Below, piece by piece: positions 27,179 to 40,602 of a stretch of 64,000 nt of DNA. The first letter of the stretch is position 1. Every line of letters begins with the position of its first letter. The position numbers and the translations under genes were made by a program. The notes under the pieces are model-generated. The model saw only the letters and a program-made list of their open reading frames with translations. It was not told where the DNA came from and did not search any database. The DNA lies in the NCBI GenBank assembly GCA_016869975.1, contig VGCZ01000010.1, positions 1 through 64,000 on the forward strand, in the 5' to 3' direction. Source of the stretch: Alphaproteobacteria bacterium (lineage in GTDB: Bacteria > Pseudomonadota > Alphaproteobacteria > Reyranellales > Reyranellaceae).

Positions 27179-27763
27179 ATGTCCACTGTCTTGAACCTTC
27201 TCTCCCTCGTGATCTCCGGCATCGTCGCAGCGATTCCCGGCGTCGCTTTGGCGCAGTCCGGGTCGCGCGTACCGATCGATTGGAGGGGCGTGAAGCTCGA
27301 TTCGATCGGCGAGGGGCTGCTGCCTACCGCGGAGTACAAAGGCAAGGTGGTGCTGGTGGTGAATACGGCGTCGCTGTGTGGCTTCACCGACCAGTACGCG
27401 GGGCTCGAGGCGCTATGGCGCCGCTACAAGGACAAGGGCTTCGTGTTGCTGGGCGTGCCGTCGAACGATTTCGGCGGCCAGGAACCGGGCGGCAAGGCCG
27501 AGATCAAGAGTTTCTGCGAGTCGACGTTCGATATCACCTTTCCACTGGCCGACAAGCAGGCGGTCACCGGTGAGCGCGCGCACCCGCTCTACAAGTGGAT
27601 CGCGACGCAGGCCGGGCCGCTGGGCGCGCCGAAGTGGAACTTCCACAAGTATCTCGTCGGTCGCGACGGCAACCTCGTCGAGTGGTACTCGGCGATGACC
27701 GGGCCGGGCTCGACGGCGATCGACGACGCCATCCGCAAGGCGTTGGCCGCGCCCGGCGCGTAG
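27179..27763 (+). CDS. Glutathione peroxidase-family protein, exported
   Basis: The 194-residue protein has a signal peptide (hydrophobic residues 5-25, ending VALAQ) and a thioredoxin-fold peroxidase domain. The peroxidatic residue is Cys67 in NTASLCGFTDQY, where animal enzymes have selenocysteine; GVPSNDFGGQEPG supplies the Gln and PKWNFHKYLVG the Trp-Asn. The second cysteine in FCESTFDITF suggests it works with thioredoxin. It would reduce peroxides in the periplasm. The stop shares a base with the start of the ELM1-family gene. Confidence 0.88.
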   Translation: MSTVLNLLSLVISGIVAAIPGVALAQSGSRVPIDWRGVKLDSIGEGLLPTAEYKGKVVLVVNTASLCGFTDQYAGLEALWRRYKDKGFVLLGVPSNDFGGQEPGGKAEIKSFCESTFDITFPLADKQAVTGERAHPLYKWIATQAGPLGAPKWNFHKYLVGRDGNLVEWYSAMTGPGSTAIDDAIRKALAAPGA

Positions 27764-28746
27764 TGGGCGAGGCGGCGCCCAGCGTCTGGCTGCTGATCGG
27801 CGACAAGGCCGGCGACGCCGCGCAGCTTCGCGTGCTGGCCGACGCGCTCGGCTGGCCGGCACGCGAGATCGCGCTCGAGACCAATCGCTGGCGCGACGTG
27901 CCCAATCTGCTGCTCGGCGCGAGCCTGCTGTCGTCGCGAGCGGTGTTCGCGCCGCCCTGGCCCGATCTCGTGATGTGGGCGGGTCGGCGCGGTACGCCGA
28001 TCGCGCGCTGGATCCGGCGCGCCAGCGGTGGTCGAACGCGGCTGGTCAATCTCGGCCGGCCATGGGCGCCCTACGGCGCGGTCAATCTGGTGATCGGCAT
28101 GCCGCAGTATCGGCCGCCACCGCGATCGAACGTGCTGGCGGCGCGATTGCCGTTCAATCGCCGGCGCGTCGAACGGCGAAGCGGTGATCATGTCGTGCTG
28201 CTGGTTGGCGGGCCGGCGCCGCCGCTGGCTTTCGGCATCGCCGAGGCGCGGCGCATCGGTGCGGACGCGCGCTCGCTCGCGACCCGTGAAGGCCTGAAGC
28301 TGCTTGTCGTCGCCTCGCGGCGCACGCCGCGCGCGATCGCAGAGATGCTGGGTGCGACGGATGCGGACTATGGCGAGGCGCTGTCGTCGGCGGCGCGCAT
28401 CGTCGTCACCGGCGACAGCGCCTCGATGATCGCCGACGCGCTGTCGACGGGGCGTCCGGTGGATATCGCGCCGCTGCCTTTCGCCCGCGCGCCGCTGTCG
28501 CTTCTCGCGCGCGGGCTCGACGCGGCGCTGCCGCGCGCGCTGGTGAGCGCCACGCAGTCCTTGGGATTGTGGGAGCGGCCGCGCGACATGCCGAGCCTGT
28601 GGCGCGCGCTGCTGGCGGGCGGGCATGTCGGCCTGCTCGGCGGCGCCGAGCCGTCGCATCGCGCGCCGCCGCCCGATGATCTAATGGAGACTGTGGCCCG
28701 CATTCGCGCGCTGATCCTGAAACAAACTGAAACAAACCCGCTGTAG
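27763..28746 (+). CDS. ELM1-family protein (mitochondrial fission ELM1 homologue)
   Basis: A 327-residue protein starting at a GTG that overlaps the glutathione peroxidase stop (TAGTG). The beginning VWLLIGDKAGDAAQLRVLADALG and later segments VVLLVGGPAPP and IVVTGDSASMIADALSTGRPVDI match the ELM1 group, which has a GT-B glycosyltransferase-like fold. Its biochemical role in bacteria is not established; a sugar-transfer function to lipids is a guess from the fold. It lies 105 bases before the acyl-AMP ligase of the sphingolipid cluster, so a link to that cluster is possible. The last codons contain a 10-base tandem duplication (28717-28736). Confidence 0.75.
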   Translation: MGEAAPSVWLLIGDKAGDAAQLRVLADALGWPAREIALETNRWRDVPNLLLGASLLSSRAVFAPPWPDLVMWAGRRGTPIARWIRRASGGRTRLVNLGRPWAPYGAVNLVIGMPQYRPPPRSNVLAARLPFNRRRVERRSGDHVVLLVGGPAPPLAFGIAEARRIGADARSLATREGLKLLVVASRRTPRAIAEMLGATDADYGEALSSAARIVVTGDSASMIADALSTGRPVDIAPLPFARAPLSLLARGLDAALPRALVSATQSLGLWERPRDMPSLWRALLAGGHVGLLGGAEPSHRAPPPDDLMETVARIRALILKQTETNPL

Positions 28747-28851
28747 GCGGCACATGTGGCTCGCCTTGTCGCTCGGCGGCCCATCTGCTACACCGCGCGC
28801 CGTTTTGCCGGGCGTCGCCCGGCGCGTTCCCGATTCGCCAACGACGCGCGG

Positions 28852-30597
28852 ATGACCCCCACCGCCACCGCCAATACGACCTTGCCCTACCGCCGCGCCG
28901 GCTTCGCCAGCGTGCCGGAGATGCTCGACTACGCGGCGCGCGGGCAGACCGGCGTGAACTTCTTCGATCCGCGCGGACGGCTCACCGCGACGATGACCTG
29001 GGGCGAGCTGCGCGAGCGCGCCCACGTCTTCGCGCGCCGCCTGATCGGCGCCGGCTTCGCGCGCGGCGAACGGCTGCTGATCACCGCCGATACCTGGCCC
29101 GGCTTCATGGTGTCGTTCTTCGGCGCGCAGTACGCCGGGTTGCTGCCGGTGCCGGTGTCGTTGCCGGCCGGGCTGGGCGGCAAGGACGCCTATCTCGATC
29201 AGCTGCGGCGCCAGCTCGCCGCTTCGGGCGCGGTGGCGGCGTTGGCCACGGACGAGCTCGCCGGCTATCTCACGACCGCCGCCGAGGGCTCCGCCGCGCG
29301 CCTGGTCGGAGCGATGAGCACGTTCGAGGCGTTGCCCGAGAAGCCCGTCGATCTGCGGCCGTGGGGCGCGGGCGAGCGCTGCTATCTGCAATTCTCCTCC
29401 GGCAGCACGCGCTTTCCGCTCGGCGTCGACATCCGCCAGGACGCGCTGATGGCCAATATCGCCGGCCAGATCGGCGATCACGGCTTGGCGATCGGCCCGC
29501 GCGACCACGTCACAAGCTGGCTGCCGCTCTATCACGATATGGGCCTGATCGGCTTCATGCTGGCGCCGATGGCGGCGCAGCGCTCGATCGATTACCTGAG
29601 CGCACGCGACTTCGCGCGGCGGCCGATGCAATGGCTGTCGCTGATCTCGCAGCGGCGCAGCTCGATCACCTATAGCCCGAGCTTCGGCTACGACCTGACG
29701 ACGCGTCGGGCGCAGACGCAGTCGCTCGACGGCCTCGACCTGAGTTGCGTGCGCATTGCCGGTATCGGTGGCGACATGATCCAGCCCAGCGTGCTGGCTC
29801 GCTTCGCCGCGCGCTTCGGTCCCGCTGGCTTCGACACGGGCGCCTTCATGCCGAGCTACGGCATGGCCGAGGTCTGCCTGGCGTTGAGCTTCGGCCGGCG
29901 CGGCGACGGCTTTCATGTCGACACCGTCGATCGCCAGCAGCTGTCCGAGGACCGCGTCGCGCGCGCGGTGGCCCCGTCGGAGTCGTCGCGTGCGTTCGTG
30001 CTTTGCGGTCTGCCGCTGCCCGAGCATCCCGTCGAGATTCGCGATGAGGCCGGCGCTGTCCTGCCCGAGCGGCGCGTCGGTCGCATCTTCGCCAAGGGAC
30101 CGAGCATCATGGCCGGTTATTTCGAGGCGCCCGAAGCCAGCGCCGAGGCGTTGAAGGATGGCTGGCTCGACACCGGCGATCTCGGCTACTGGCTCGACGG
30201 TCAGCTCGTCGTGACCGGCCGCGCCAAGGATCTGATCATCGTCAACGGCCGCAACATCTGGCCGCAGGACATCGAGTGGTCGGTCGAAGAGCTGCCGCAG
30301 CTGAGGCGCGGCGACGTTTGCGCCTTCTCGATCGACGCCGAGGACGGCGCCGAAAGCATCGTCGTGGTCGTCAACGCCTGGCCCGCGCAGGAAGAGGCGC
30401 GCACGGCGCTCATCGGCGCCGCGCAGCAGATCGTCAAGGAGACCGTCGGCGTCGACTGCGTCGTACAGCTGCTGTCGCCGTCGATCGGCCTGCCGATGAC
30501 GTCCTCAGGCAAGCTCAGTCGTTCGCGTGCGCGCACGCGCTATCTCGCCGGCGAATACGCCAACGGCGGCCGCCGGCCGGTGCCCGCAGCGACATGA
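28852..30597 (+). CDS. Fatty acyl-AMP ligase / acyl-ACP synthetase-like protein
   Basis: The 581-residue ANL-superfamily enzyme has the phosphate loop YLQFSSGSTRFPLGV (residues 179-193, slightly atypical after SSGST), the adenine-binding PSYGMAEVCLALS, the hinge region GWLDTGDLGYWLDGQLVVTGRAKDLIIVNGRNIWPQDIE and a final lysine in SSGKLSRSRARTRYL. FAAL-type enzymes form acyl-AMP and load it on an acyl carrier protein, which fits the carrier protein gene 1 kb downstream. The stop overlaps the start of the epimerase-like gene (ATGA). In Caulobacter a similar synthetase lies in the ceramide locus; here that role is inferred from the same neighbours. Confidence 0.85.
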   Translation: MTPTATANTTLPYRRAGFASVPEMLDYAARGQTGVNFFDPRGRLTATMTWGELRERAHVFARRLIGAGFARGERLLITADTWPGFMVSFFGAQYAGLLPVPVSLPAGLGGKDAYLDQLRRQLAASGAVAALATDELAGYLTTAAEGSAARLVGAMSTFEALPEKPVDLRPWGAGERCYLQFSSGSTRFPLGVDIRQDALMANIAGQIGDHGLAIGPRDHVTSWLPLYHDMGLIGFMLAPMAAQRSIDYLSARDFARRPMQWLSLISQRRSSITYSPSFGYDLTTRRAQTQSLDGLDLSCVRIAGIGGDMIQPSVLARFAARFGPAGFDTGAFMPSYGMAEVCLALSFGRRGDGFHVDTVDRQQLSEDRVARAVAPSESSRAFVLCGLPLPEHPVEIRDEAGAVLPERRVGRIFAKGPSIMAGYFEAPEASAEALKDGWLDTGDLGYWLDGQLVVTGRAKDLIIVNGRNIWPQDIEWSVEELPQLRRGDVCAFSIDAEDGAESIVVVVNAWPAQEEARTALIGAAQQIVKETVGVDCVVQLLSPSIGLPMTSSGKLSRSRARTRYLAGEYANGGRRPVPAAT

Positions 30598-31538
30598 GCC
30601 GCCTGGTCGCGGTCACCGGCGCGACCGGCTTCATCGGCCAGCATCTGATCCGGTTGCTCGCTGCGCGCGGGCATCGTCTACGCCTGCTGGTGCGCGGCCT
30701 GCCTTCGCTGCCGGCTTGCGATCCACCCATCGAATTGCAACCCGGCGATCTGCGCGAGAGAGCGGCGCTCGAACGCCTCGTCGAAGGCGTGGATGTCGTT
30801 CTGCACCTCGCCGGCGCGATCAAGGCGCTGGCCGACGCCGACTTCCGCGCCGTCAACGTCGATGCCGTCGCCGCGCTCGCCGAGGGCACCGCGCGTCGCG
30901 CCCGGCCCGACGCGCTCTTCGTCCTGGTGTCCTCGCTGGCCGCCCGCGAGCCGTCACTGTCGACCTACGCCGCCACGAAGCGGGCCGGAGAGGACGGCCT
31001 GTCGGCGCTCGGCCCCCGGCAACGGCGCGTCATCGTGCGCGCCCCGGCTGTCTACGGGCCGGGTGATCGCGAAACCCTGGTGTTCTTCAAGGCCGCCGCG
31101 CGCGGCTGGTCGATGGTGCCTTCAGGCACCGACGGCCGCGTGGCGATGATCCACGTGCGCGACCTGTGCGCCGCGCTGGCCGCCATCGTCGAGCGGCCGC
31201 CGGCCGATGGCGTCTACGAGATCGACGACGGCACCCAGGGCGGCCATACCCTGCGCTCGTTAGCGGCGATGGCGGCCGACGTGATGGGCCATAGGGTTCG
31301 CATAGCGAAACTGCCGCATCGAGTGCTGGGCGGCTATGCTGCGGCGCAGCAATTTGCCGCTCGCTTACGCGGGCGGCCTGCGATAGTGTCGTCAGGCAAG
31401 GTTCGGGAGCTCCTGCATCCCGACTGGTCCGTTCGCGACCGCCGCTTGGCTGACTGGCTGCAGCTGGGGCCGGCGATCGACCTCAGGACCGGGTTCACAG
31501 AGACGGTTGAGTGGTATCGGGCGCATCGCTGGTTGTAA
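30594..31538 (+). CDS. NAD-dependent epimerase/dehydratase-family protein, CerR-like
   Basis: A 314-residue extended short-chain dehydrogenase. The nucleotide loop GATGFIG is at residues 9-15 and the catalytic pair Tyr125 and Lys129 is in STYAATKRAGED. In the Caulobacter ceramide pathway a protein of this family, CerR, reduces the keto group of 3-oxo-ceramide or 3-oxo-sphinganine; the position between an acyl ligase and carrier protein/serine palmitoyltransferase genes supports the same job here. A sugar-nucleotide epimerase is the alternative. Start overlaps the ligase stop (ATGA). A 110-base AT-rich gap follows. Confidence 0.78.
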   Translation: MSRLVAVTGATGFIGQHLIRLLAARGHRLRLLVRGLPSLPACDPPIELQPGDLRERAALERLVEGVDVVLHLAGAIKALADADFRAVNVDAVAALAEGTARRARPDALFVLVSSLAAREPSLSTYAATKRAGEDGLSALGPRQRRVIVRAPAVYGPGDRETLVFFKAAARGWSMVPSGTDGRVAMIHVRDLCAALAAIVERPPADGVYEIDDGTQGGHTLRSLAAMAADVMGHRVRIAKLPHRVLGGYAAAQQFAARLRGRPAIVSSGKVRELLHPDWSVRDRRLADWLQLGPAIDLRTGFTETVEWYRAHRWL

Positions 31539-31600: not shown

Positions 31601-31648
31601 CGAGCTTTTGTCCTATGTCGCAAACGAACCCCCTCCGGAGTGGCCGAA

Positions 31649-31960
31649 ATGCGCGCCAGCCACAAGTTCAAGGTTTACGAGTTTGCGGACGAAGCCATGA
31701 GTGACGCGCCCTCCGTCTCGCGCGACGAGGTCCGGGCGGACATTTGCCGTCGACTCGACCCGTTCCGCACCGATGCTCGACCGATCACGGGCGCCACCGT
31801 GATCACCAAGGATCTGAACATCGACTCGCTGGCCGTGATGGACATGGTGATGGAGCTGGAGGACACCTACGACATCTCCATTCCGTTGAATGTCGTCGCG
31901 GAGATACACACGGTGGACGAGCTGACCGACACGGTTCTGAAGATCCGCGGGGAGCGCTGA
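31649..31960 (+). CDS. Acyl carrier protein of the sphingolipid cluster
   Basis: A 103-residue acyl carrier protein with the phosphopantetheine site at Ser60 in NIDSLAVMDMVMELEDTYDISIPL. It has about 20 extra N-terminal residues (MRASHKFKVYEFADEA) compared with a normal AcpP; a second ATG at 31697 (MSDAPSVS) would remove them. CGGAG lies 8 bases before the first ATG, which favours the longer form. The gene ends 2 bases before the serine palmitoyltransferase gene, so it most likely hands the acyl chain to that enzyme. Confidence 0.9.
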   Translation: MRASHKFKVYEFADEAMSDAPSVSRDEVRADICRRLDPFRTDARPITGATVITKDLNIDSLAVMDMVMELEDTYDISIPLNVVAEIHTVDELTDTVLKIRGER

Positions 31961-31962
31961 TC

Positions 31963-33180
31963 ATGGGCCTGTTCGATCGCCACGCGCAGCTGCTCGACTT
32001 CTACCGCGGCGTGCAGGCCAGCGGCGCCGACCCGATCGGCGTGACGATGGAGCGCGTGCTGTCGCCCACCGAGGCGATCATCAACGGCAAGCGCACCCTG
32101 TTGGTCGGCACCAACAACTACTTCGGCCTGACCTTCGATCCGGCCTGCATCGAGGCGGCCGTCGAGGCGACCAAGGCGGAGGGCACGGGCACGACCGGCT
32201 CGCGCATCCTCAACGGCAGCTACACCGACCATACCGACCTGGAGCGCGAGCTCGCCGATTTCTACGGCATGAAGCACTGCATGGTCTTCACCACGGGCTA
32301 CCAGGCCAATCTCGGCCTGATCTCGACCCTGGTGGGCGAAGGCGACTACCTGATCATCGACGCCGACAGCCACGCCTCGATCTACGACGCCTGCAAGCAG
32401 ACCCAGGCGACGATCATCCGCTTCAAGCACAACGACCCGGCCAGCCTGGAGGCGCGCCTGCGCCGCCTCGACAAGGAGAAGGGCAACAAGCTGGTGGTGG
32501 TCGAGGGCATCTACTCGATGCTGGGCGACACCGCGCCGCTCAAGGAGTTCGTGGCCGTCACCAAGCGGCACGGCGCCTACATCATGGTTGACGAGGCGCA
32601 TTCGCTGGGCGCGCTGGGCGAGCATGGCCGCGGCCTGGTGGAAGAGGTCGGCGTGCTCGACGAGGTCGACTTCGTCGTCGGCACATTCTCCAAGACGCTG
32701 GGCGCCATCGGCGGCTTCGCGGTGTCGAACCACGACGGCTTCGACGTGCTTAGACTGGCGACACGAGCCTACATGTTCACGGCCTCGCTGCCGCCGTCCA
32801 TCGTCGCCTCGGTGCGCGCCGCCTTGCGTGTCGTGCGCGCGCGGCCGGAGCTGAAGACCAAGCTGTGGGCCAATGTCGCCACGCTGTACGACGGGCTGGC
32901 GGCGGCCGGCTTCACCCTGGGGCCGCAGCACGGTCCGGTGGTGGCGGTGCAGTTGCCCGACCTGCCGACCGCGATCGCCTTGTGGCGCGCGCTGCTCGAC
33001 GAAGGCGTCTACGTCAACATCGCCGGCCTGCAGGCCACGCCCGGCGGCGTGCCGCTGATGCGGTGCAGCCTGTCGGCGGCGCACAGCAAGGCGCAGCTCG
33101 AGCAGGTGGTCGACACCTTCGTCAGGCTCGGGACCAGCTTCGGCCTGCTCAAGCCGCTGAAGCGCGCCGCCGTCGGCTAG
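31963..33180 (+). CDS. spt: Serine palmitoyltransferase (alpha-oxoamine synthase)
   Basis: The 405-residue PLP enzyme condenses serine with a fatty acyl thioester to form 3-keto-sphinganine. Key residues are seen: His137 stacking on PLP (DADSHASIYD), Asp210 and His213 (VDEAHSLGALGEHGRG) and the Schiff-base Lys244 (GTFSKTLGAIGGF). The segment YMFTASLPPSIVASV matches serine palmitoyltransferases more closely than 2-amino-3-ketobutyrate CoA ligase or AONS. Neighbouring carrier protein, acyl ligase and CerR-like genes, as in the Caulobacter ceramide locus, settle the assignment. Cytoplasmic. Confidence 0.9.
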   Translation: MGLFDRHAQLLDFYRGVQASGADPIGVTMERVLSPTEAIINGKRTLLVGTNNYFGLTFDPACIEAAVEATKAEGTGTTGSRILNGSYTDHTDLERELADFYGMKHCMVFTTGYQANLGLISTLVGEGDYLIIDADSHASIYDACKQTQATIIRFKHNDPASLEARLRRLDKEKGNKLVVVEGIYSMLGDTAPLKEFVAVTKRHGAYIMVDEAHSLGALGEHGRGLVEEVGVLDEVDFVVGTFSKTLGAIGGFAVSNHDGFDVLRLATRAYMFTASLPPSIVASVRAALRVVRARPELKTKLWANVATLYDGLAAAGFTLGPQHGPVVAVQLPDLPTAIALWRALLDEGVYVNIAGLQATPGGVPLMRCSLSAAHSKAQLEQVVDTFVRLGTSFGLLKPLKRAAVG

Positions 33181-33230: not shown

Positions 33231-34196
33231 TCAGCGAAAAGCACCCGATCGCCACCAGCGCCACGCCAATAGCGGCGCGCTGAGCAGCGGGTGACGTCGC
33301 TGCCATGGCGTGATCGCCAGTCGTTTGCCGGCGTGGCGCTCGATCTTCCACACCAGGTAATCGGCGCCGCCCTCGAAGGTGAAGGCGGCCTTCGACAGTC
33401 TGAGAGCGCTCATCAACTTGCCGCGGGCGCGCGACAGGCGGGGCGGCGGCGGCGCGCTCAGCAGGCGAAAGCCGTCGTCGTCGCTCCGCTCCACGGTGAA
33501 GCCCGCGGCGTCGAGCGCGAAGCGCGTGACGACGGTGAAGCGTGAGGCCTGCAGGTCGTGCAGCGAGGCGACGCGCTCGGCGCTCTCCGGCCGCAGCTCG
33601 CGGCCGTAGCTGTCGGCGAACACGCGCCGCCATAGCTCGCGGGGCGTGAAGCGTCGGCCGAAGGACGGCGCGGTCGCGGCCGCCGCCGTGGCCACCGCTT
33701 CGGCCAGCAGGGCGACGATCTCGCGTCGCATCGCCGCGCCGCGCGCGAAGGGCACCGCCGTCGGCTGGCAGAGCCGCGCCCAGAAATACGAATCGCGGGC
33801 CTCCGTCGATACGGCGTGGCGCAATTGCGCCAGGCCGACGACGCCGTACTTGCAGCGCAGCCTGCCGGCGTCGGTGGTGAGCTCGAGGCGGAAGACGTTG
33901 GGCGGCAGCACGCGATTGCCCCAGGCGGCGAGCGCGCCGCGGTTGGCGGCCCGCAGGTCGTCGACCACGACGTAGAAGTCATGAATACGATCATCGCCCG
34001 GGCCAGCCGTCGGCGTCCGCAGGCAGGAGCCATAGAACAACGTCGCCAGCGCGCCGCCTTTGAAGCGCGCCAGCAGCGCCTGGTTGATCGCCATGGCCGC
34101 CTCGCCGATGCGCTGCTCGGCCTCCGTCTCGACCAGCCGAAGCAGCGCGACGCGCGCGCCGTCGTGGTCGGGAGCCTGGACGCGGCCGGCCGTCAC
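33231..34196 (-). CDS. Tam41-like nucleotidyltransferase (possible lipid cytidylyltransferase)
   Basis: The 321-residue protein has the order of motifs of Tam41-type phosphatidate cytidylyltransferases: FYGSCLR (residues 54-60) for the nucleotide, HDFYVVVDD (72-80) with the metal Asp, then VLPPNVFRLEL, CKYGVVGLAQL and a FWARLCQPT segment that parallels GRLxKPv. Tam41 makes CDP-diacylglycerol from CTP and phosphatidate in mitochondria and some bacteria. Here the start GTG overlaps the stop of a CDP-alcohol phosphatidyltransferase gene, so the two are co-translated. Use of ceramide phosphate or another lipid phosphate in place of phosphatidate is an inference from the location next to serine palmitoyltransferase. 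Confidence 0.7.
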   Translation of the reverse strand: MTAGRVQAPDHDGARVALLRLVETEAEQRIGEAAMAINQALLARFKGGALATLFYGSCLRTPTAGPGDDRIHDFYVVVDDLRAANRGALAAWGNRVLPPNVFRLELTTDAGRLRCKYGVVGLAQLRHAVSTEARDSYFWARLCQPTAVPFARGAAMRREIVALLAEAVATAAAATAPSFGRRFTPRELWRRVFADSYGRELRPESAERVASLHDLQASRFTVVTRFALDAAGFTVERSDDDGFRLLSAPPPPRLSRARGKLMSALRLSKAAFTFEGGADYLVWKIERHAGKRLAITPWQRRHPLLSAPLLAWRWWRSGAFR

Positions 34197-35317
34197 GCGT
34201 CCGCCAGATAGGGCGTCACGGCGCGGCCCATGGCGCGCGCGGCGAAAGCCTGCGCGATGCGCACGCCGTGGAACGCCAGGCAGAGCAGGGTCCAGACGGC
34301 GACAGCAGCCAACCCGAGATCCGGCCGGCCGGCCAACGTCGCGACGCTCAGCAGGATGAGGTTGGGATTGCGGCGCGCCGTGATCAGGCGCGACAGCGCG
34401 TCGAGCGGGCGCCAGCCGAACATCTCGAAGCGGAAGGCGGCGAGGAACAGGCCTTCCTGGGCGCGGCCCAAGACGTAGCCTGCGATCACGATCCAGACCG
34501 CGATGTCCATGTGCGGCGGGATTGTCGGCGCGAGGCCGACGTACCAAGCGTACCACCAGAACGGCGGATGCAGCAGGTCGGTGCCATGATCGAGCGCGTC
34601 GCCGAGCTTCGACGACGCGAGCGTCACCCGCGCCAGCTTGCCATCGACCGTGTCGAGGAAGCACATCGCCCAGGCCGCCAGCAGCCCGGACAGATACCAG
34701 CCGGTCGCGAACAGAACCGTCGCCGCCAGCACGCAGAGGAAGCTCACCACCGTCACGGCGTTGGGCGTGATACGTGCCGCCGCGCACCAGCGCGTGACCA
34801 GGAAGGCGGGCGTCGGCCAGACATACTTGGTCACGACATCGGTGATGCCCTTGTAGGTCGCGTCGTACATGACGCGTTCGACCGCGCGCGGCGCCATCGC
34901 GCGGCTCGACAGGGCGTAGGGCGGCACACGGTTGCGCAGCTTGGCACGATAGGCGCCGGCCAGCTGTGGTGGCGTCACGGTGGCGAGCCCGGCGCGCGCG
35001 CAGTCGTCGGACGTGCCGTCGAGCAGGGTCCGGCCTTCCGCGACGCGCGCGGCGTCGATGGCGATCGCGGCGACGCCCGGCGTGTTCGAGGAGGCGAGGG
35101 CGAGATCGCGCGCCGCCGCGAGCGGCCCGGCCAGAGCGTCGTCGAGGACGTGGTCCGCGCGCAGCAGCAGAAGGCGGCCGCTGGTCGGCATCGGGGCCGA
35201 CGCGTCGGCGACGTCGAGGCCGGCGAACATCCGCCGCGCGCGTTCCAGCGCCGTGCGCGAGAACAGGCGCGGCCCTTCGGCGCCGATCAGTCGTACGCTC
35301 AGGCTGACGTCGTTCAA
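34193..35317 (-). CDS. CDP-alcohol phosphatidyltransferase with extra N-terminal domain
   Basis: The 374-residue membrane protein carries a complete CDP-alcohol phosphotransferase signature from Asp222 to Asp247: Asp222, Asp225-Gly, Ala229-Arg230, Gly239, Asp243, Asp247 with the canonical spacing. Several membrane helices follow and precede it (about 187-220, 260-290, 330-355). Residues 1-150 form a soluble domain with LLLLRADHVLDDALAG, which looks like a worn-down nucleotidyltransferase domain, the order seen in fused inositol-phosphate cytidylyltransferase/phosphatidyltransferase enzymes. It would join a CDP-activated group to an alcohol to make a phospho-headgroup lipid. First of two coupled genes; diverges from the metallophosphoesterase gene. 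Confidence 0.85.
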   Translation of the reverse strand: MNDVSLSVRLIGAEGPRLFSRTALERARRMFAGLDVADASAPMPTSGRLLLLRADHVLDDALAGPLAAARDLALASSNTPGVAAIAIDAARVAEGRTLLDGTSDDCARAGLATVTPPQLAGAYRAKLRNRVPPYALSSRAMAPRAVERVMYDATYKGITDVVTKYVWPTPAFLVTRWCAAARITPNAVTVVSFLCVLAATVLFATGWYLSGLLAAWAMCFLDTVDGKLARVTLASSKLGDALDHGTDLLHPPFWWYAWYVGLAPTIPPHMDIAVWIVIAGYVLGRAQEGLFLAAFRFEMFGWRPLDALSRLITARRNPNLILLSVATLAGRPDLGLAAVAVWTLLCLAFHGVRIAQAFAARAMGRAVTPYLADA

Positions 35318-35397: not shown

Positions 35398-36315
35398 ATG
35401 TTCCGCTTCGCGCATCTCTCCGACCCGCATCTGCCCCTGCCGGACGTGCGCATGCGCGAGCTGCTCTCCAAGCGGATGACCGGCTGGCTGTCGTGGCGCT
35501 ATCGGCGGCGGCGCATCCATGCGCCGGACGCGCTGGCGGCCGCCGTGACGGATCTGCGCCGCGCCGCGCCCGACCATGTCGCCGTCACCGGCGACATCGC
35601 CAACATCTCGACCGCGGCGGAGTTCCGGCAGGCGGCGGCCTGGCTGCGCGAGCTCGGCCGGCCCGAGGATGTCACGCTGGTGCCCGGCAACCACGACGCC
35701 TACGTGCCCGTCCCGTGGGCGACGTCGCAGGGTCTGTGGGGCGCCTATATGGCGGGCGACGGTGCCGCGCCGCCGGCCTCGCGCGACGATTTCCCGCTGC
35801 TGCGCCGGCGCGGCTGCGTGGCCTTCATCGGGCTGAGCACGGCGCTGCCGCGCGCGCCGCTGATCGCCACGGGCGAGGTCGGCGCCGCTCAGCTCGCACG
35901 CTTCGAGGCGATGATGCGCGACCTGCGGGACCTGTGCCGGGTGGTGCTGATCCACCATCCGCCGCAGATCGGCGGCGCCAGCCGGCACAAGGAGCTGAGC
36001 GACCAGCGCGCGGTGCGCGAGGCGATCGCCCGGGTCGGCGCCGACCTCGTACTGCACGGCCACATGCACCGCACCATGCTGGGCCGCATCGAGTCGCCCC
36101 AGGGGCCGGTGCCAGTGCTGGGCGTGGCATCGACCTCGGCGCACCCCGCCAGCAAGTACGGCGCCGGCGGCTACAACATGATCGGCGTCGAGCGCGATCC
36201 CGATGGCGGCTGGCGCTTCGACGTCGAGGTGCGCTCGATCCGCCCCGATCTCTCTGGCTGCGACACCGGCAACCGTTTTCACCTGCGCTCACCGACACCG
36301 GCGGTCGCGGCCTGA
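35398..36315 (+). CDS. Calcineurin-like metallophosphoesterase
   Basis: A 305-residue cytoplasmic phosphoesterase with the full two-metal set: HLSDPHL (Asp and His), VTGDIAN, PGNHDAY, LIHHPP and LHGHMH. The closest general pattern is CpdA-like phosphodiesterases. In a lipid setting such enzymes can split a pyrophosphate or remove a phosphate from a lipid intermediate; that role is inferred. It starts 80 bases from the divergent CDP-alcohol transferase gene and is followed by an AT-rich gap before lptF. Confidence 0.85.
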   Translation: MFRFAHLSDPHLPLPDVRMRELLSKRMTGWLSWRYRRRRIHAPDALAAAVTDLRRAAPDHVAVTGDIANISTAAEFRQAAAWLRELGRPEDVTLVPGNHDAYVPVPWATSQGLWGAYMAGDGAAPPASRDDFPLLRRRGCVAFIGLSTALPRAPLIATGEVGAAQLARFEAMMRDLRDLCRVVLIHHPPQIGGASRHKELSDQRAVREAIARVGADLVLHGHMHRTMLGRIESPQGPVPVLGVASTSAHPASKYGAGGYNMIGVERDPDGGWRFDVEVRSIRPDLSGCDTGNRFHLRSPTPAVAA

Positions 36316-36479: not shown

Positions 36480-37727
36480 ATGACGGTCACGGGCATCGCA
36501 ACAGGCGGCAAGGACAGGCGGGGGCCGCTGTCGGCCACCGTGTTCGACCGCTACGTCCTGGCGCGCACCCTGATGCCGCTCAGCGCCGCCCTGCTGATCG
36601 CGCTGCTGGCGCTCCTGCTGGAGCGCATGGTCCGCATCATGGACATGCTGGTGAATCAGGGCGGGCCGATCGTCCTGGTGCTGAAGCTGCTGGCCAATCT
36701 GGTGCCGCACTATCTTGGCGTCGCCCTGCCGCTGGCGCTTTTCCTGGGCGTGATGATCGCCGCCACACGGCTCAGCGCCGACGGCGAGCTCGACGGGCTG
36801 CAATCGTCGGGCATCAGCCTCAACCGCCTGCTGTGGCCGCTGCTCGGGCTGTCCTTCATGCTTAGCCTGGCGATGTTCGCGACCACCGGCTGGCTGCAGC
36901 CGCACACGCGCTACCAATACCGCGCGCTGCTCTATGTCGCGACCTCCTCGATGGTCGACCTGGCGATCGAGAAGGGTGCCACCTTCAATCGCTTCGGTGA
37001 CTACACCATCGTCGTCGACGACATCGTCGACCGCGGGCTCACCTTGAAAGGCGTGTTCATCCACAAGGTCACGCCCGAGGGCGTCGTCGAGATCATGACC
37101 GCGCAAAGCGGTACCGCCGCGCGCGTGCCGGAGGATTTCAGCGTCCTGCTCAAGCTGCGCGACGGCCGTCGGCTCGACACGCCGGCCGACGCCGGGCGGC
37201 TGAGCGTGCTGTCCTTCGACAGGCTCGACCTGCCGCTGGAGCTGACCGGCGCCGCCGCCTTCCGGCCGCGCAACGCCGAGCGCGAACTCACCTTGCCCGA
37301 GCTGTTCGGGCAGGCGCGCGAGCGCACGCTCGATGTGAAGCCGTACCGCATCCGGACCGAGATCCACGCGCGGCTGGTGCGCACCATCTCGACCTTCTTC
37401 ATGCCGATCCTCGGGCTGGCGCTGGGCCTCGCCGCGCCGCGCGGCCAGCGGGTGGCGGGCGTGGCCTTCGGCATCGCGCTGATCGCGATCTTCCATTACG
37501 GGCTGAACTTCGGCGAGAAAGCCGCCGATCTCGGCAAGGTCTCGCCGATTGTCTCGCTGTGGCTGCCCTTCCTGGGGATGGCGGGGCTGGCGGTGTGGGC
37601 CTTCCGCGTCGTCGCCGAGAGTCCGCGCGACAATGCGATCTCCATCATGCTCGGGGCCATCGACCGGCGCCGCCGCGACGCGATGGCGGCGCTACGCGCG
37701 CTGGGTCGCCGGCCGGGCAGGGCATGA
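36480..37727 (+). CDS. lptF: LptF-like permease
   Basis: A 415-residue LptF/LptG-family protein: cytoplasmic start, helices at about 25-45, 60-85 and 100-125, a periplasmic beta-jellyroll section (about 130-290, FNRFGDYTIVVDDIVDRG to LDLPLELTG), then three more helices (RTISTFFMPILGLALGLAA onward). The LptF/G pair with LptB forms the ABC exporter that extracts lipopolysaccharide from the inner membrane. Here the pair lies in a sphingolipid locus and not beside lptD or lptA, so it may carry sphingolipid instead of or as well as LPS. Stop overlaps lptG start (ATGA). Confidence 0.85.
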   Translation: MTVTGIATGGKDRRGPLSATVFDRYVLARTLMPLSAALLIALLALLLERMVRIMDMLVNQGGPIVLVLKLLANLVPHYLGVALPLALFLGVMIAATRLSADGELDGLQSSGISLNRLLWPLLGLSFMLSLAMFATTGWLQPHTRYQYRALLYVATSSMVDLAIEKGATFNRFGDYTIVVDDIVDRGLTLKGVFIHKVTPEGVVEIMTAQSGTAARVPEDFSVLLKLRDGRRLDTPADAGRLSVLSFDRLDLPLELTGAAAFRPRNAERELTLPELFGQARERTLDVKPYRIRTEIHARLVRTISTFFMPILGLALGLAAPRGQRVAGVAFGIALIAIFHYGLNFGEKAADLGKVSPIVSLWLPFLGMAGLAVWAFRVVAESPRDNAISIMLGAIDRRRRDAMAALRALGRRPGRA

Positions 37728-38800
37728 TGGGAGTCGCGCTGCGCTATCTCTGCCGCCGGTTCCTGTCGCGCTTCGCGCTGGTGCTGAGCGGCGCGGCGCT
37801 GCTGATTACGCTCTTCGACGCGCTCAACTCCATCGACACGATCGAGCAGCGCTATGGCTACGATGTCGTCTCGGTGGCGCGCTACATGGTCTGCCGCCTG
37901 CCCGACCACGCCAACACCATCCTGCCGCTAGCGGTGCTGGTCTCGGCGCTGATCACCTTGCTCGGCCTCGCCCAGGCCAACGAGATCCTGGCCTTCAAGG
38001 GCGCCGGCCTCTCCTTCGTGCGAATCGTCGTGCTGCTGCTGCCGGCGGCCGCGGTGGTGGCGGCGACGCATTTCGTCATCGGCGACCAGTTGGTGCCCTG
38101 GGGCCGCGCCACGTTGGCGGCGCAGGAGGTCGAACGGCCGGGTGGCTCGACCGTCGAAGGCGGCCGTGGCCTATGGCTGCGCGACGCGCCGTACCTGGTG
38201 CGGGTCGAGGCGGTGCATCGCGAGGGCCGCTACCTCGCCGATATCTCGCTGATGCGGCGTGACGCCCAGGGCAACCTGGTCGAGCGGATCTTCGCCCGTG
38301 GCGCGCGCCACGAGACCGGCGGCTGGCGGCTGATCGACGTCGTCGTCCAGACCATCGATCCGGTGGCGCCGCGCTCCGAGCCGCTGGCCGAGCGCTTCTG
38401 GCCGACGGCGCTCGCGCCGGGCGACTTCCACAATCTGACGGCCAGCCCGGCGCAGTTCACCGCCGCGCAGCTGATCGCACTGCGCGACGGCCAGGCGATC
38501 GGCGCGCGCCAGCCGCATGTCTACGACACGTGGCTGCAGCGGCGCCTGGCGATCCCGGCCGTGATCGTGGTCATGCTGCTGCTCGCCGCGCCCGTCGCCC
38601 AGGCGCGCATGCGCGGCGCCAGCATCGGCGGCCGGCTGGTGGTCGGCGTGGCGCTGGGCTTTCTCTATTTCATCACCGACGGCCTGGCGTTGGCGCTGGG
38701 CGAGGGCGGCGCGATCCTGCCAATGGTCGCCGCCTGGACGCCGGTGCTGGCCTTCGCCAGCATCGGCGGCAGCGTCCTGATGCGCGTCGAGCGGGTGTGA
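37724..38800 (+). CDS. lptG: LptG-like permease
   Basis: The 358-residue partner of the LptF-like protein: opening helix LSRFALVLSGAALLITLFDALN, a second block LPLAVLVSALITLLGLAQANE, a coupling-helix region NEILAFKGAGLS, the periplasmic jellyroll (about 130-270) and three C-terminal helices (AIPAVIVVMLLLAAPVAQAR onward). The order lptF-lptG with ATGA overlap is standard for the exporter. The stop overlaps the GTG of a nucleotidyltransferase gene (GTGA), which is not part of known LPS transport operons. No lptB, lptC or lptA gene is in the window. Confidence 0.85.
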   Translation: MMGVALRYLCRRFLSRFALVLSGAALLITLFDALNSIDTIEQRYGYDVVSVARYMVCRLPDHANTILPLAVLVSALITLLGLAQANEILAFKGAGLSFVRIVVLLLPAAAVVAATHFVIGDQLVPWGRATLAAQEVERPGGSTVEGGRGLWLRDAPYLVRVEAVHREGRYLADISLMRRDAQGNLVERIFARGARHETGGWRLIDVVVQTIDPVAPRSEPLAERFWPTALAPGDFHNLTASPAQFTAAQLIALRDGQAIGARQPHVYDTWLQRRLAIPAVIVVMLLLAAPVAQARMRGASIGGRLVVGVALGFLYFITDGLALALGEGGAILPMVAAWTPVLAFASIGGSVLMRVERV

Positions 38801-39564
38801 CGGCCAAACGCTACACGGCTCTGGTGCTCGCCGGCCGACGCGGGGTCACGGATCCGGTAGCCACGTCCGAAGGAATCGCCCACAAGGCGTTGGCTCAGGT
38901 TGGCGGCCGGCCGCTGATCGCCTGGGTCCTCGATGCTTTGCGCGCCGCGAGCGCCGTCGCCGACATCATGGTCGCGACCGAGGAGGCCGATGTCGCACAC
39001 GCGGCTGAGGGCGCCACGATCGTGCCGATCGCAGCGTCGCCCGCCGCCACTGTGGCGCTGGCGCTGGGCACGACGCCGTCGCTGTTGGTCACGACCGCCG
39101 ATCACGGGCTGTTGTCGCCGGCGCTCATCGAGGCATTCTGCGCCGGCGTGCCGCGCGCCTACGACATCGCCGTCGGCGTGGTGCCGCGCCGCGCCGTCGC
39201 GTCCGGGCCGACGCGCCGCACCTTCTATCGACTCGCCGACGGCGACTATTGCAGCGCCAACCTCTACGCCTTCGCCGGCCCGCGCAGCGCGGCGGCGGCC
39301 ACCTTCTGGGTCGGCCTCGAGGCCGAGCGCAAGAACCCGGTGCGGCTGGCGGCGCGGATCGGGCCGACGACCTTGCTGCGTTACGCGCTGCGCCGTCTCG
39401 ACCTTGCGGCCGCCTTCGCCTTGCTGTCGCATCGCGCCCACGCGGCCATCGCGCCGGTCGTGCTCGACGACGCCGACGCGGCGATCGATGTCGACACGCC
39501 CGAGGATCTGGCGCTGGTGCGCGCCCGGCTCAGCGCTGGGCGACGTTGCGACCGATCGCCATGA
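38797..39564 (+). CDS. NTP-transferase-domain protein (MobA/IspD-like)
   Basis: A 255-residue protein starting VTAKRYTALVLAGRRG, a slightly altered LAGGxGxR nucleotide-binding loop, followed by AHKALAQVGGRPLIAWVLDAL and the metal-binding VTTADHGLL. It belongs to the GT-A-type nucleotidyltransferases that make NDP-linked alcohols or sugars. Start GTG overlaps the lptG stop (GTGA), so its amount is tied to that of the exporter. It could activate a headgroup phosphate for the CDP-alcohol transferase; substrate unknown. The last 35 bases overlap the end of the small convergent membrane-protein gene. Confidence 0.75.
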   Translation: MTAKRYTALVLAGRRGVTDPVATSEGIAHKALAQVGGRPLIAWVLDALRAASAVADIMVATEEADVAHAAEGATIVPIAASPAATVALALGTTPSLLVTTADHGLLSPALIEAFCAGVPRAYDIAVGVVPRRAVASGPTRRTFYRLADGDYCSANLYAFAGPRSAAAATFWVGLEAERKNPVRLAARIGPTTLLRYALRRLDLAAAFALLSHRAHAAIAPVVLDDADAAIDVDTPEDLALVRARLSAGRRCDRSP

Positions 39565-39820
39565 AGGCGCCGGCGATGGCGCCGAGCACGACCGCGCCCA
39601 GGCACTTGCCGGCGGCCTCGGCCACGATCTCGCGCGAGCCCGACGTCAACTCGGCGCCGAACAGCGAGACGCCCACGGCCAAGCCGCCCAGCGCGCCGAA
39701 CAGAGCGAAGAGCCGGACGCTCCAGGTCGCCGGGCCGACCGTGATGGTCACCCGCCGATCCTCGCGCGCCGGCACCGGGTCGCCCATCGCCTTGGCGCGC
39801 CGGCGGTCCTTGCGGTTCAT
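39530..39820 (-). CDS. Small hypothetical membrane protein
   Basis: The 96-residue protein begins MNRKDRRRAKAMG, strongly basic, and has two hydrophobic helices (about residues 31-50 and 69-90) separated by a short loop containing SGSREIVAEAAGK. The ATG at 39820 overlaps the stop of the upstream nucleotidyltransferase gene (ATGA); an ATG two codons earlier is also possible. Coupling to that gene suggests a membrane anchor or partner for it. No family recognised. Its 3' end overlaps the opposite nucleotidyltransferase gene by 35 bases. Confidence 0.6.
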   Translation of the reverse strand: MNRKDRRRAKAMGDPVPAREDRRVTITVGPATWSVRLFALFGALGGLAVGVSLFGAELTSGSREIVAEAAGKCLGAVVLGAIAGAFMAIGRNVAQR

Positions 39821-40530
39821 CGCCATGGCATGGTCTCGGCCGCGGCGAGGTCATCGGCGGTGTCGATCTCGATCCAGCGTCGGCCGTGGATCGAGCGCAC
39901 GCCGACTTGGTCCCGTCGGGCCAGCGCATCGAGCGCCTCGGGATAGAGCGCACGCTCGCCGCCGGGCTCGGCGAGGCGTGTCGCCACCTGGCTCAGGAAG
40001 AGGGCGCGGCCCGCGCCGCGCAACAGCGTGACGCCGATCGCCTCGCCATCGGCCTGGGCGAGGTGCTTGCCGATGCGGCTGAGCCTTGTGTCCGTGGTCA
40101 CGACTTTCATGTCGTCGGCATCGTAGAGCGGCTTGCGGTCGATCGCGATCAGGATCGGCACCGGCGCGGCCGTCAGCAGGTCGCCGAGCACGCCGTCCTC
40201 GAACAGCACGTCGCCGTTGAGCAGGAGGGTCGAATCGTCGGTGAAATGGTCGCGCGCGGCGTGGCAACTCGCGAGATTGTCTGTCGTCGCATGGTCGAGG
40301 TTTCGCACGCTCAGGACACCCGGCCGCGCGGCGAGGTGCGCCTCCACCGTCTCGGCGGCGTGGCCGGTGACGACCGCGACCTCATGCACGCCGGCGCGGG
40401 CCAGCGCATCGAGCTGTCGATCGAGGATGGCGCGGCCACCGACCGGCAACAGGCATTTCGGCCGCTGGTCGGTGAGCGGCGCCAGCCGCGCGCCGCGTCC
40501 GGCGGCGAGGATGACGGCGCTCAGCACCAT
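39817..40530 (-). CDS. Sugar/alcohol-phosphate nucleotidyltransferase (LicC/IPCT-like)
   Basis: A 237-residue nucleotidyltransferase with a textbook start: VILAAGRGARLAPLTDQRPKCLLPVGGRAIL, the LLLNGDVLFEDG metal motif and WIEIDTADDLAAAE at the end, which is typical of enzymes using CTP with choline phosphate or inositol phosphate. It would make a CDP-activated headgroup. Such an enzyme is what the CDP-alcohol transferase 4 kb away would need. The ATG at 40530 excludes ten earlier codons without similarity. Headgroup not determinable. Confidence 0.82.
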   Translation of the reverse strand: MVLSAVILAAGRGARLAPLTDQRPKCLLPVGGRAILDRQLDALARAGVHEVAVVTGHAAETVEAHLAARPGVLSVRNLDHATTDNLASCHAARDHFTDDSTLLLNGDVLFEDGVLGDLLTAAPVPILIAIDRKPLYDADDMKVVTTDTRLSRIGKHLAQADGEAIGVTLLRGAGRALFLSQVATRLAEPGGERALYPEALDALARRDQVGVRSIHGRRWIEIDTADDLAAAETMPWR

Positions 40531-40602
40531 GACTCGGGGCCGCCATGCGCGGGCCAACCATGACAGGACGGAGCGCGGTGGCTACAGTGCCGCCTCGTCG
40601 CG

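What the first reader, a model, noticed from the sequence alone, without database searches (positions are those of the whole stretch)
33231..35317. Tam41-like cytidylyltransferase coupled to a CDP-alcohol transferase, beside serine palmitoyltransferase
The two genes overlap by four bases. The first has GS, DF and KYGV motifs of Tam41, the second a full CDP-alcohol phosphotransferase signature. A CTP-activating enzyme and a CDP-consuming enzyme in one unit next to ceramide genes suggest a CDP-lipid intermediate built on a sphingoid lipid rather than on phosphatidate. I know of no described CDP-ceramide pathway.
Basis: partly seen in the sequence, partly recalled or inferred. Interest (0 to 1): 0.72.

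Follow-up and report, generated by a model that had tools for sequence, protein, structure and literature searches.

The report
Tam41-like enzyme in bacterial sphingolipid cluster
This is the gene cluster that some bacteria use to build ceramide phosphoglycerate lipids; one gene, whose job is officially still unknown, proves to be a distant cousin of the mitochondrial enzyme Tam41 and probably attaches CMP to phosphorylated ceramide, so the missing step can now be tested directly.

Summary
33231-34196(-) encodes a 321-aa protein, 34193-35317(-) a CDP-alcohol transferase; they overlap by GTGA, beside serine palmitoyltransferase. The surrounding genes match, in order, the published Caulobacter ceramide (di)phosphoglycerate cluster (CC_1165-CC_1152), so the two genes are cpgC and cpgA. 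The predicted CpgC structure (pLDDT 88) has Tam41 crystal structures as its only PDB matches with E<0.001, and a 43-member family profile hits S. pombe Tam41 at 1.3e-5, with YGS, Asp, Lys and Arg-x-x-Gln-Pro conserved. The ceramide kinase cpgB, missing from the window, sits elsewhere in the genome; across 80 loci kinase and cpgC are adjacent in 73. That favours ceramide-1-phosphate as substrate, hence CDP-ceramide (inferred, not shown). Genetics and fold place CpgA with a second cytidylyltransferase, CpgD, whose homologue is at 39817-40557. Nucleotide-activated ceramide was already proposed in 2024, but later papers call CpgC's mechanism unidentified. Verdict: known cluster, new member; useful structural assignment of an open enzymatic step.

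The parts
33231..34196 (-). cpgC: Tam41-like cytidylyltransferase, 321 aa, GTG start; proposed ceramide-1-phosphate cytidylyltransferase
   Evidence: Sequence and ORF; predicted fold matches Tam41 6ig2, 7ecd, 6ig4; family profile hits 6ig2 at 1.3e-5; 14 of 43 relatives match PF09139
34193..35317 (-). cpgA: CDP-alcohol phosphotransferase with degenerate N-terminal cytidylyltransferase-like domain, 374 aa
   Evidence: PF01066; exact signature; predicted fold matches AF2299 and IPCT-DIPPS
34193..34196 (-). GTGA overlap of cpgA stop and cpgC start
28846..30597 (+). aasR: fatty acyl-AMP ligase / acyl-ACP synthetase (start codon uncertain)
   Evidence: NF006624, 736 bits over a cut-off of 600
30600..31538 (+). 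cerR: NAD-dependent epimerase-type reductase (start codon uncertain)
   Evidence: PF01370 9e-21; synteny with CC_1164
31640..31960 (+). acpR: specialised acyl carrier protein
   Evidence: PF00550; synteny with CC_1163
31963..33180 (+). spt: serine palmitoyltransferase
   Evidence: NF047599 equivalog over cut-off
35398..36315 (+). metallophosphoesterase, counterpart of CC_1158
   Evidence: PF00149; position in the cluster
36480..37727 (+). lptF2 counterpart
   Evidence: position in the cluster; conserved near cpgC in 62 of 80 loci; named from synteny
37613..38800 (+). lptG2 counterpart (start codon uncertain)
   Evidence: as lptF2; 62 of 80 loci
38797..39564 (+). MobA/CofC-like nucleotidyltransferase, counterpart of CC_1153
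   Evidence: PF12804; weak F420 CofC match
39817..40557 (-). cpgD counterpart: nucleotidyltransferase of the CTP:inositol-1-phosphate / phosphocholine cytidylyltransferase type
   Evidence: PF12804, PF00483; PDB 6pd1, 1jyk, 2xme, 4jd0

Best explanation
The window holds a ceramide (di)phosphoglycerate (CPG/CPG2) locus of an alphaproteobacterium near Reyranella and Vineibacter. The Tam41-like gene is cpgC. CpgB, encoded elsewhere in this genome behind recG, phosphorylates ceramide (shown for the Caulobacter enzyme). CpgC then most likely uses CTP and Mg to place CMP on ceramide-1-phosphate, giving CDP-ceramide plus pyrophosphate, as Tam41 does with phosphatidate (inferred). CMP is displaced by glycerate to give CPG, by an enzyme not yet identified (inferred). 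The adjacent CDP-alcohol transferase CpgA works later: it takes phosphoglycerate from CDP-glycerate made by CpgD and adds it to CPG, giving CPG2 (genetics and CpgD activity shown in Caulobacter; CpgA reaction inferred). Rough sub-confidences: CPG-type locus 0.95, distant Tam41 homologue 0.93, CDP-ceramide as product 0.6, CpgA paired with CpgD rather than with CpgC 0.75.
For: Gene order matches CC_1165-CC_1152 apart from cpgB, cerS and the unrelated CC_1157 (PMC11324152). Tam41 chains are the only PDB fold matches with E<0.001; profile match to SpTam41 E=1.3e-5; PF09139 in 14 of 43 relatives, best 8.8e-9. As reported for Tam41, only one acidic residue of the usual three appears kept (D73 invariant). 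cpgB directly precedes cpgC in 73 of 80 loci from several phyla. Within the order, full-length CpgB occurs in 9 of 9 genomes with cpgC and 0 of 15 without. The genome has a CdsA. In Caulobacter CC_1161 is needed for CPG, while CC_1159 and CC_1152 are needed only for CPG2. CpgA folds like AF2299 and IPCT-DIPPS; the latter uses a soluble CDP-alcohol. 17 of 28 loci with cpgA also carry cpgD, 0 of 21 without.
Against: No activity is shown for any CpgC. No dedicated enzyme that would use CDP-ceramide is visible in loci lacking cpgA. Sequence identity to solved Tam41 is only 11-14% and TM about 0.5, so substrate cannot be read from the fold. Some Desulfobacterota MAGs have cpgB and cpgC but no detectable serine palmitoyltransferase. 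The cpgA-cpgD association rests on few supported independent pairs (2) once the tree is considered.
Confidence: 0.58

Rival explanations
1. One reading: CpgC makes CDP-ceramide and the overlapping CDP-alcohol transferase CpgA is the enzyme that consumes it, as one two-step unit.
For: Four-base overlap here; direct cpgA-cpgC adjacency arose about three times, in Reyranellaceae, one deltaproteobacterial MAG and one Burkholderiales MAG.
Against: 21 of 49 well-flanked loci have cpgC (20 of them with cpgB) but no cpgA. In Caulobacter CC_1160 without CC_1159 is enough for CPG; Zymomonas lacks CC_1159 yet keeps the CPG genes. CpgA folds like enzymes that use soluble CDP-alcohols.
Confidence: 0.12
2. 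CpgC makes CPG from ceramide-1-phosphate by itself: CTP activates one partner on the enzyme and glycerate or phosphoglycerate is condensed in the same active site, the conserved C-terminal region serving the second step.
For: Of the cluster's decorating genes only cpgB and cpgC are needed for CPG in Caulobacter (PMC12275187), and no dedicated transferase was found in loci without cpgA. Residues 255-321 are highly conserved in the family.
Against: No precedent for such a second step in the Tam41 fold; Tam41 releases CDP-DAG (PMC7018664).
Confidence: 0.18
3. CpgC is a second CDP-diacylglycerol synthase acting on phosphatidate; its place in the cluster reflects general envelope lipid supply.
For: The solved Tam41 enzymes act on phosphatidate (PMC7018664, PMC11646218); purified CpgB also phosphorylates diacylglycerol (PMC10331486).
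Against: The genome has CdsA. Within the order cpgC is found only where cpgB is found. The Caulobacter CC_1161 mutant loses CPG and CPG2.
Confidence: 0.1

Closest known systems
CpgC / CC_1161 / CCNA_01219 of Caulobacter crescentus
   Same: Position directly beside spt, CDP-DAG-synthase-type domain, not among proteins listed with membrane helices, partner of cpgB and cpgA (PMC11324152)
Tam41/TAMM41, mitochondrial and Firmicutes CDP-DAG synthase (PDB 6ig2, 6ig4, 7ecd)
   Same: Nucleotidyltransferase fold, YGS, single conserved Asp, KYGV/KYAV, Arg-x-x-x-Pro, Tyr-x-x-x-x-Arg motifs
   Different: 11-14% identity; shorter loop after ELR; a strongly conserved C-terminal region of its own (FTFxGGxDYxxWKIxRHSG...WQRRHP); linked to ceramide genes instead of cardiolipin synthesis
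CpgA / CC_1159 and the AF2299 / IPCT-DIPPS CDP-alcohol phosphotransferases
   Same: CDP-alcohol transferase signature; N-terminal cytidylyltransferase-like domain fused to the membrane domain
   Different: The N-terminal domain lacks the usual catalytic pattern; the active cytidylyltransferase is the separate cpgD-type gene
CpgD, CTP:phosphoglycerate cytidylyltransferase (CCNA_01210)
   Same: Window gene 39817-40557 is of the same nucleotidyltransferase class and in the same place in the cluster
   Different: Substrate not tested here

Membership tests
Tam41 (PF09139) CDP-DAG synthases | Tam41 nucleotidyltransferase fold | tested here: met
   Predicted structure, pLDDT 88; the only PDB matches with E<0.001 are three Tam41 chains, probability 1.00, TM 0.45-0.56
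Tam41 (PF09139) CDP-DAG synthases | Motifs YGS, Asp, Lys-Tyr-Gly/Ala, Arg-x-x-x-Pro | tested here: met
   Y55-G56-S57, D73, K116, R141 and P145 invariant in 43 relatives; aligned with SpTam41 by profile
Tam41 (PF09139) CDP-DAG synthases | Recognised by the Pfam model | tested here: inconclusive
   Window protein itself: no match. 14 of 43 relatives match, best 8.8e-9. Genome scan gave one sub-threshold match in 399 genomes
Tam41 (PF09139) CDP-DAG synthases | CTP:phosphatidate cytidylyltransferase activity | not testable with these tools
   Needs assay; filed here as Tam41-like, a separate branch, not as a Tam41 enzyme
CpgC of the CPG/CPG2 pathway | Gene beside spt within the aasR-cerR-acpR-spt / cpgA / lptF2-lptG2 / cpgD cluster | tested here: met
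   against PMC11324152
CpgC of the CPG/CPG2 pathway | Ceramide kinase CpgB in the same genome | tested here: met
   G000:C2 128881-129813, 35% identity to the linked kinase of a relative; 9 of 9 cpgC genomes of the order, 0 of 15 others
CpgC of the CPG/CPG2 pathway | Sequence similarity to CC_1161 | not tested
   Caulobacter sequence not obtainable here; no Caulobacter record among the 80 named loci
CDP-alcohol phosphotransferase, CpgA type | D-x2-DG-x2-AR-x8-G-x3-D-x3-D signature | tested here: met
   DTVDGKLARVTLASSKLGDALDHGTD
CDP-alcohol phosphotransferase, CpgA type | AF2299-like architecture with N-terminal cytidylyltransferase-like domain | tested here: met
   4q7c, 4o6n, 4o6m TM 0.63-0.72; 4mnd over 437 columns
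CPG2 locus | Ceramide N-acyltransferase cerS present | tested here: inconclusive
   GNAT protein at G000:C6 22235-23353, 51% identical to the GNAT protein in a relative's cluster; not in the window

The most novel reading that the evidence does not exclude
CpgC is a ceramide-1-phosphate cytidylyltransferase: a branch of the Tam41 fold that makes CDP-ceramide, which would be the first CDP-lipid built on a sphingoid backbone, used by many Pseudomonadota and by Nitrospirota and Desulfobacterota as a parallel to CDP-diacylglycerol.
Probability: 0.58. Interest if true: 0.68.

Novelty: new member of a known kind. Interest (0 to 1): 0.45.

Why it matters
Papers of 2025 and 2026 state that CpgC turns ceramide-1-phosphate into CPG by an unidentified mechanism (PMC12275187, PMC13228409). 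Placing CpgC in the Tam41 fold, naming its invariant residues, and showing that it travels with ceramide kinase and not with the CDP-alcohol transferase turns that gap into one assay: CTP plus ceramide-1-phosphate. These anionic sphingolipids let Caulobacter live without LPS and are targets of polymyxins, so the step bears on outer-membrane biology.

Tried and rejected
Direct Pfam and NCBIfam searches with the window protein, and a PDB sequence search with a 9-member profile, gave nothing; only the 43-member profile reached Tam41. PF09139 as a genome probe was too insensitive. Loci that lack cpgA were searched for a substitute CDP-alcohol transferase between lptF and cpgB: the gene there is an exported DUF2141 protein, and no CDP-alcohol signature lies in 18 of 44 loci longer than 20 kb. 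cpgA-cpgD association: Fisher p 6.5e-6, but only 2 independent pairs on supported branches, so it is suggestive. The idea that the genome had lost ceramide kinase was rejected once the orthologue was found behind recG.

Full report
1. Observation. The downstream gene starts at GTG 34196 and the upstream gene stops at TGA 34195-34193, so they share GTGA. In three congeners the equivalent junction carries an ATG one codon further on, so the GTG start is a local variant. The CDP-alcohol transferase has the full signature. The other protein has the motifs named, but on its own matches no Pfam or NCBIfam model.

2. Surroundings. Reading outwards, the window carries aasR, cerR, acpR and spt on the plus strand, then cpgC and cpgA on the minus strand, then a metallophosphoesterase, lptF2, lptG2, a MobA/CofC-like gene and a CpgD-like nucleotidyltransferase (lptF2 and lptG2 are named from position). 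This is the order published for the Caulobacter phosphosphingolipid region CC_1165-CC_1152, except that CC_1160 (cpgB, ceramide kinase), CC_1157 (thought unrelated) and CC_1154 (cerS) are absent. In that paper CC_1161 has a CDP-DAG-synthase-type InterPro domain and is not among the proteins listed with membrane helices, CC_1160 is the ceramide kinase, CC_1159 a CDP-alcohol-type enzyme. The window protein also has no membrane helix by hydropathy. I did not have the Caulobacter sequences, so orthology rests on position and domain type.

3. Missing kinase and acyltransferase. The genome has one protein clearly of the CpgB type, 35% identical over its length to the kinase that lies between cpgC and cpgA in a relative. 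It lies behind recG, and does so in all nine genomes of the order that carry cpgC. A profile of CpgB finds a full-length orthologue in 9 of 9 genomes with cpgC and in 0 of 15 without; the window genome's own kinase is part of that profile, the other eight are not. A GNAT protein 51% identical to the one in a relative's cluster lies on another contig and is a candidate CerS.

4. Tam41. Thirty-seven relatives gave an AlphaFold model with pLDDT 88 and pTM 0.87. Its only PDB matches with E<0.001 are S. pombe Tam41 with and without CTP and the Firmicutes Tam41. A profile of 43 diverse relatives finds S. pombe Tam41 in the PDB sequences at E=1.3e-5, aligning KYAV to KYGV, WaRFaQP to aGRFQKP and tYraELR to sYLGDIR. 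PF09139 matches 14 of the 43. Tam41 is unusual among nucleotidyltransferases in keeping one of three acidic residues (PMC11646218); likewise one Asp of that motif, D73, is invariant here, while the following Asp residues vary. The protein is filed as Tam41-like, since activity on phosphatidate cannot be tested and identity is low.

5. Partners. A genome scan found more than 560 relatives; 80 were kept, from Alpha-, Beta- and Gammaproteobacteria, Desulfobacterota, Nitrospirota and a few binned as Marinimicrobia or Planctomycetota (bins may be contaminated). cpgB lies directly upstream in 73, cpgA in 5, other or contig end in 2. Of 49 loci with at least 6 kb on both sides, 45 have cpgB, 41 spt and 28 cpgA. 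The 21 without cpgA nearly all keep cpgB and spt (20 each), and none has a cpgD-like gene, against 17 of the 28 with cpgA. The tree shows about three independent events that put cpgA next to cpgC. The cpgA-cpgD link is strong by simple count (p 6.5e-6) but has too few independent pairs for a tree-aware test.

6. CpgA. Its model (pLDDT 92.5) matches AF2299 over its whole length, then PIP synthases and the IPCT-DIPPS fusion; the N-terminal domain matches CTP:inositol-1-phosphate cytidylyltransferase weakly. The separate CpgD-like gene belongs to that cytidylyltransferase class. So CpgD plus CpgA resemble a split IPCT-DIPPS that would use CDP-glycerate, in line with the published scheme (PMC12275187, PMC13228409).

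7. Mechanism. Shown elsewhere: CpgB phosphorylates ceramide (PMC10331486); CpgD makes CDP-glycerate (PMC12275187); CC_1160 and CC_1161 are required for CPG, CC_1159, CC_1153 and CC_1152 for CPG2 (PMC11324152). Inferred here: CpgC is a CTP-using Tam41-like enzyme whose substrate is ceramide-1-phosphate. The main gap is the enzyme that would use CDP-ceramide; loci without cpgA show no candidate, so a housekeeping CDP-alcohol transferase or CpgC itself must be considered. The genome holds a CdsA and four CDP-alcohol transferase matches besides CpgA.

8. Novelty. The cluster is known. Nucleotide-activated ceramide was proposed in one paragraph of PMC11324152; no paper in the library names CDP-ceramide; the mechanism of CpgC is called unidentified in 2025 and 2026. 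What is added here is the structural assignment to Tam41, the invariant residues, the pairing with ceramide kinase across several phyla, and evidence against coupling with the adjacent CDP-alcohol transferase. Most subscription papers could not be searched.

Noticed in passing
L065, L067, L070, L072 (Desulfobacterota / Syntrophobacterales MAGs): cpgB and cpgC present, but no serine palmitoyltransferase match in the four bins: incomplete bins or a different lipid substrate.
   Followed up: partly
L013 4030-5235, L138 and L139 about 16.7-17.8 kb: A second CDP-alcohol transferase type (DSVDGK signature) after lptG2; in L013 it is followed by a fatty acid hydroxylase and a CerS-like GNAT gene. The type is absent from the window cluster.
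   Followed up: partly
window 39530-39826 (-): Conserved 98-aa ORF between the CofC-like and CpgD-like genes, 82-92% identical in congeners, function unknown.
   Followed up: no
L079 8366-8965 and similar loci: Exported DUF2141-type protein between lptF and cpgB in several loci without cpgA.
   Followed up: no
L092, L106 (Nitrospirota): A second cpgA directly downstream of cpgC in addition to the upstream one.
   Followed up: no
window 27595-28746 (+): Mito_fiss_Elm1-family protein beside aasR; relatives near cpgC in 7 of 80 loci.
   Followed up: no
G000:C2, L051 7710-10819: Ceramide kinase gene lies behind recG instead of in the cluster, conserved in nine genomes of the order.
   Followed up: yes
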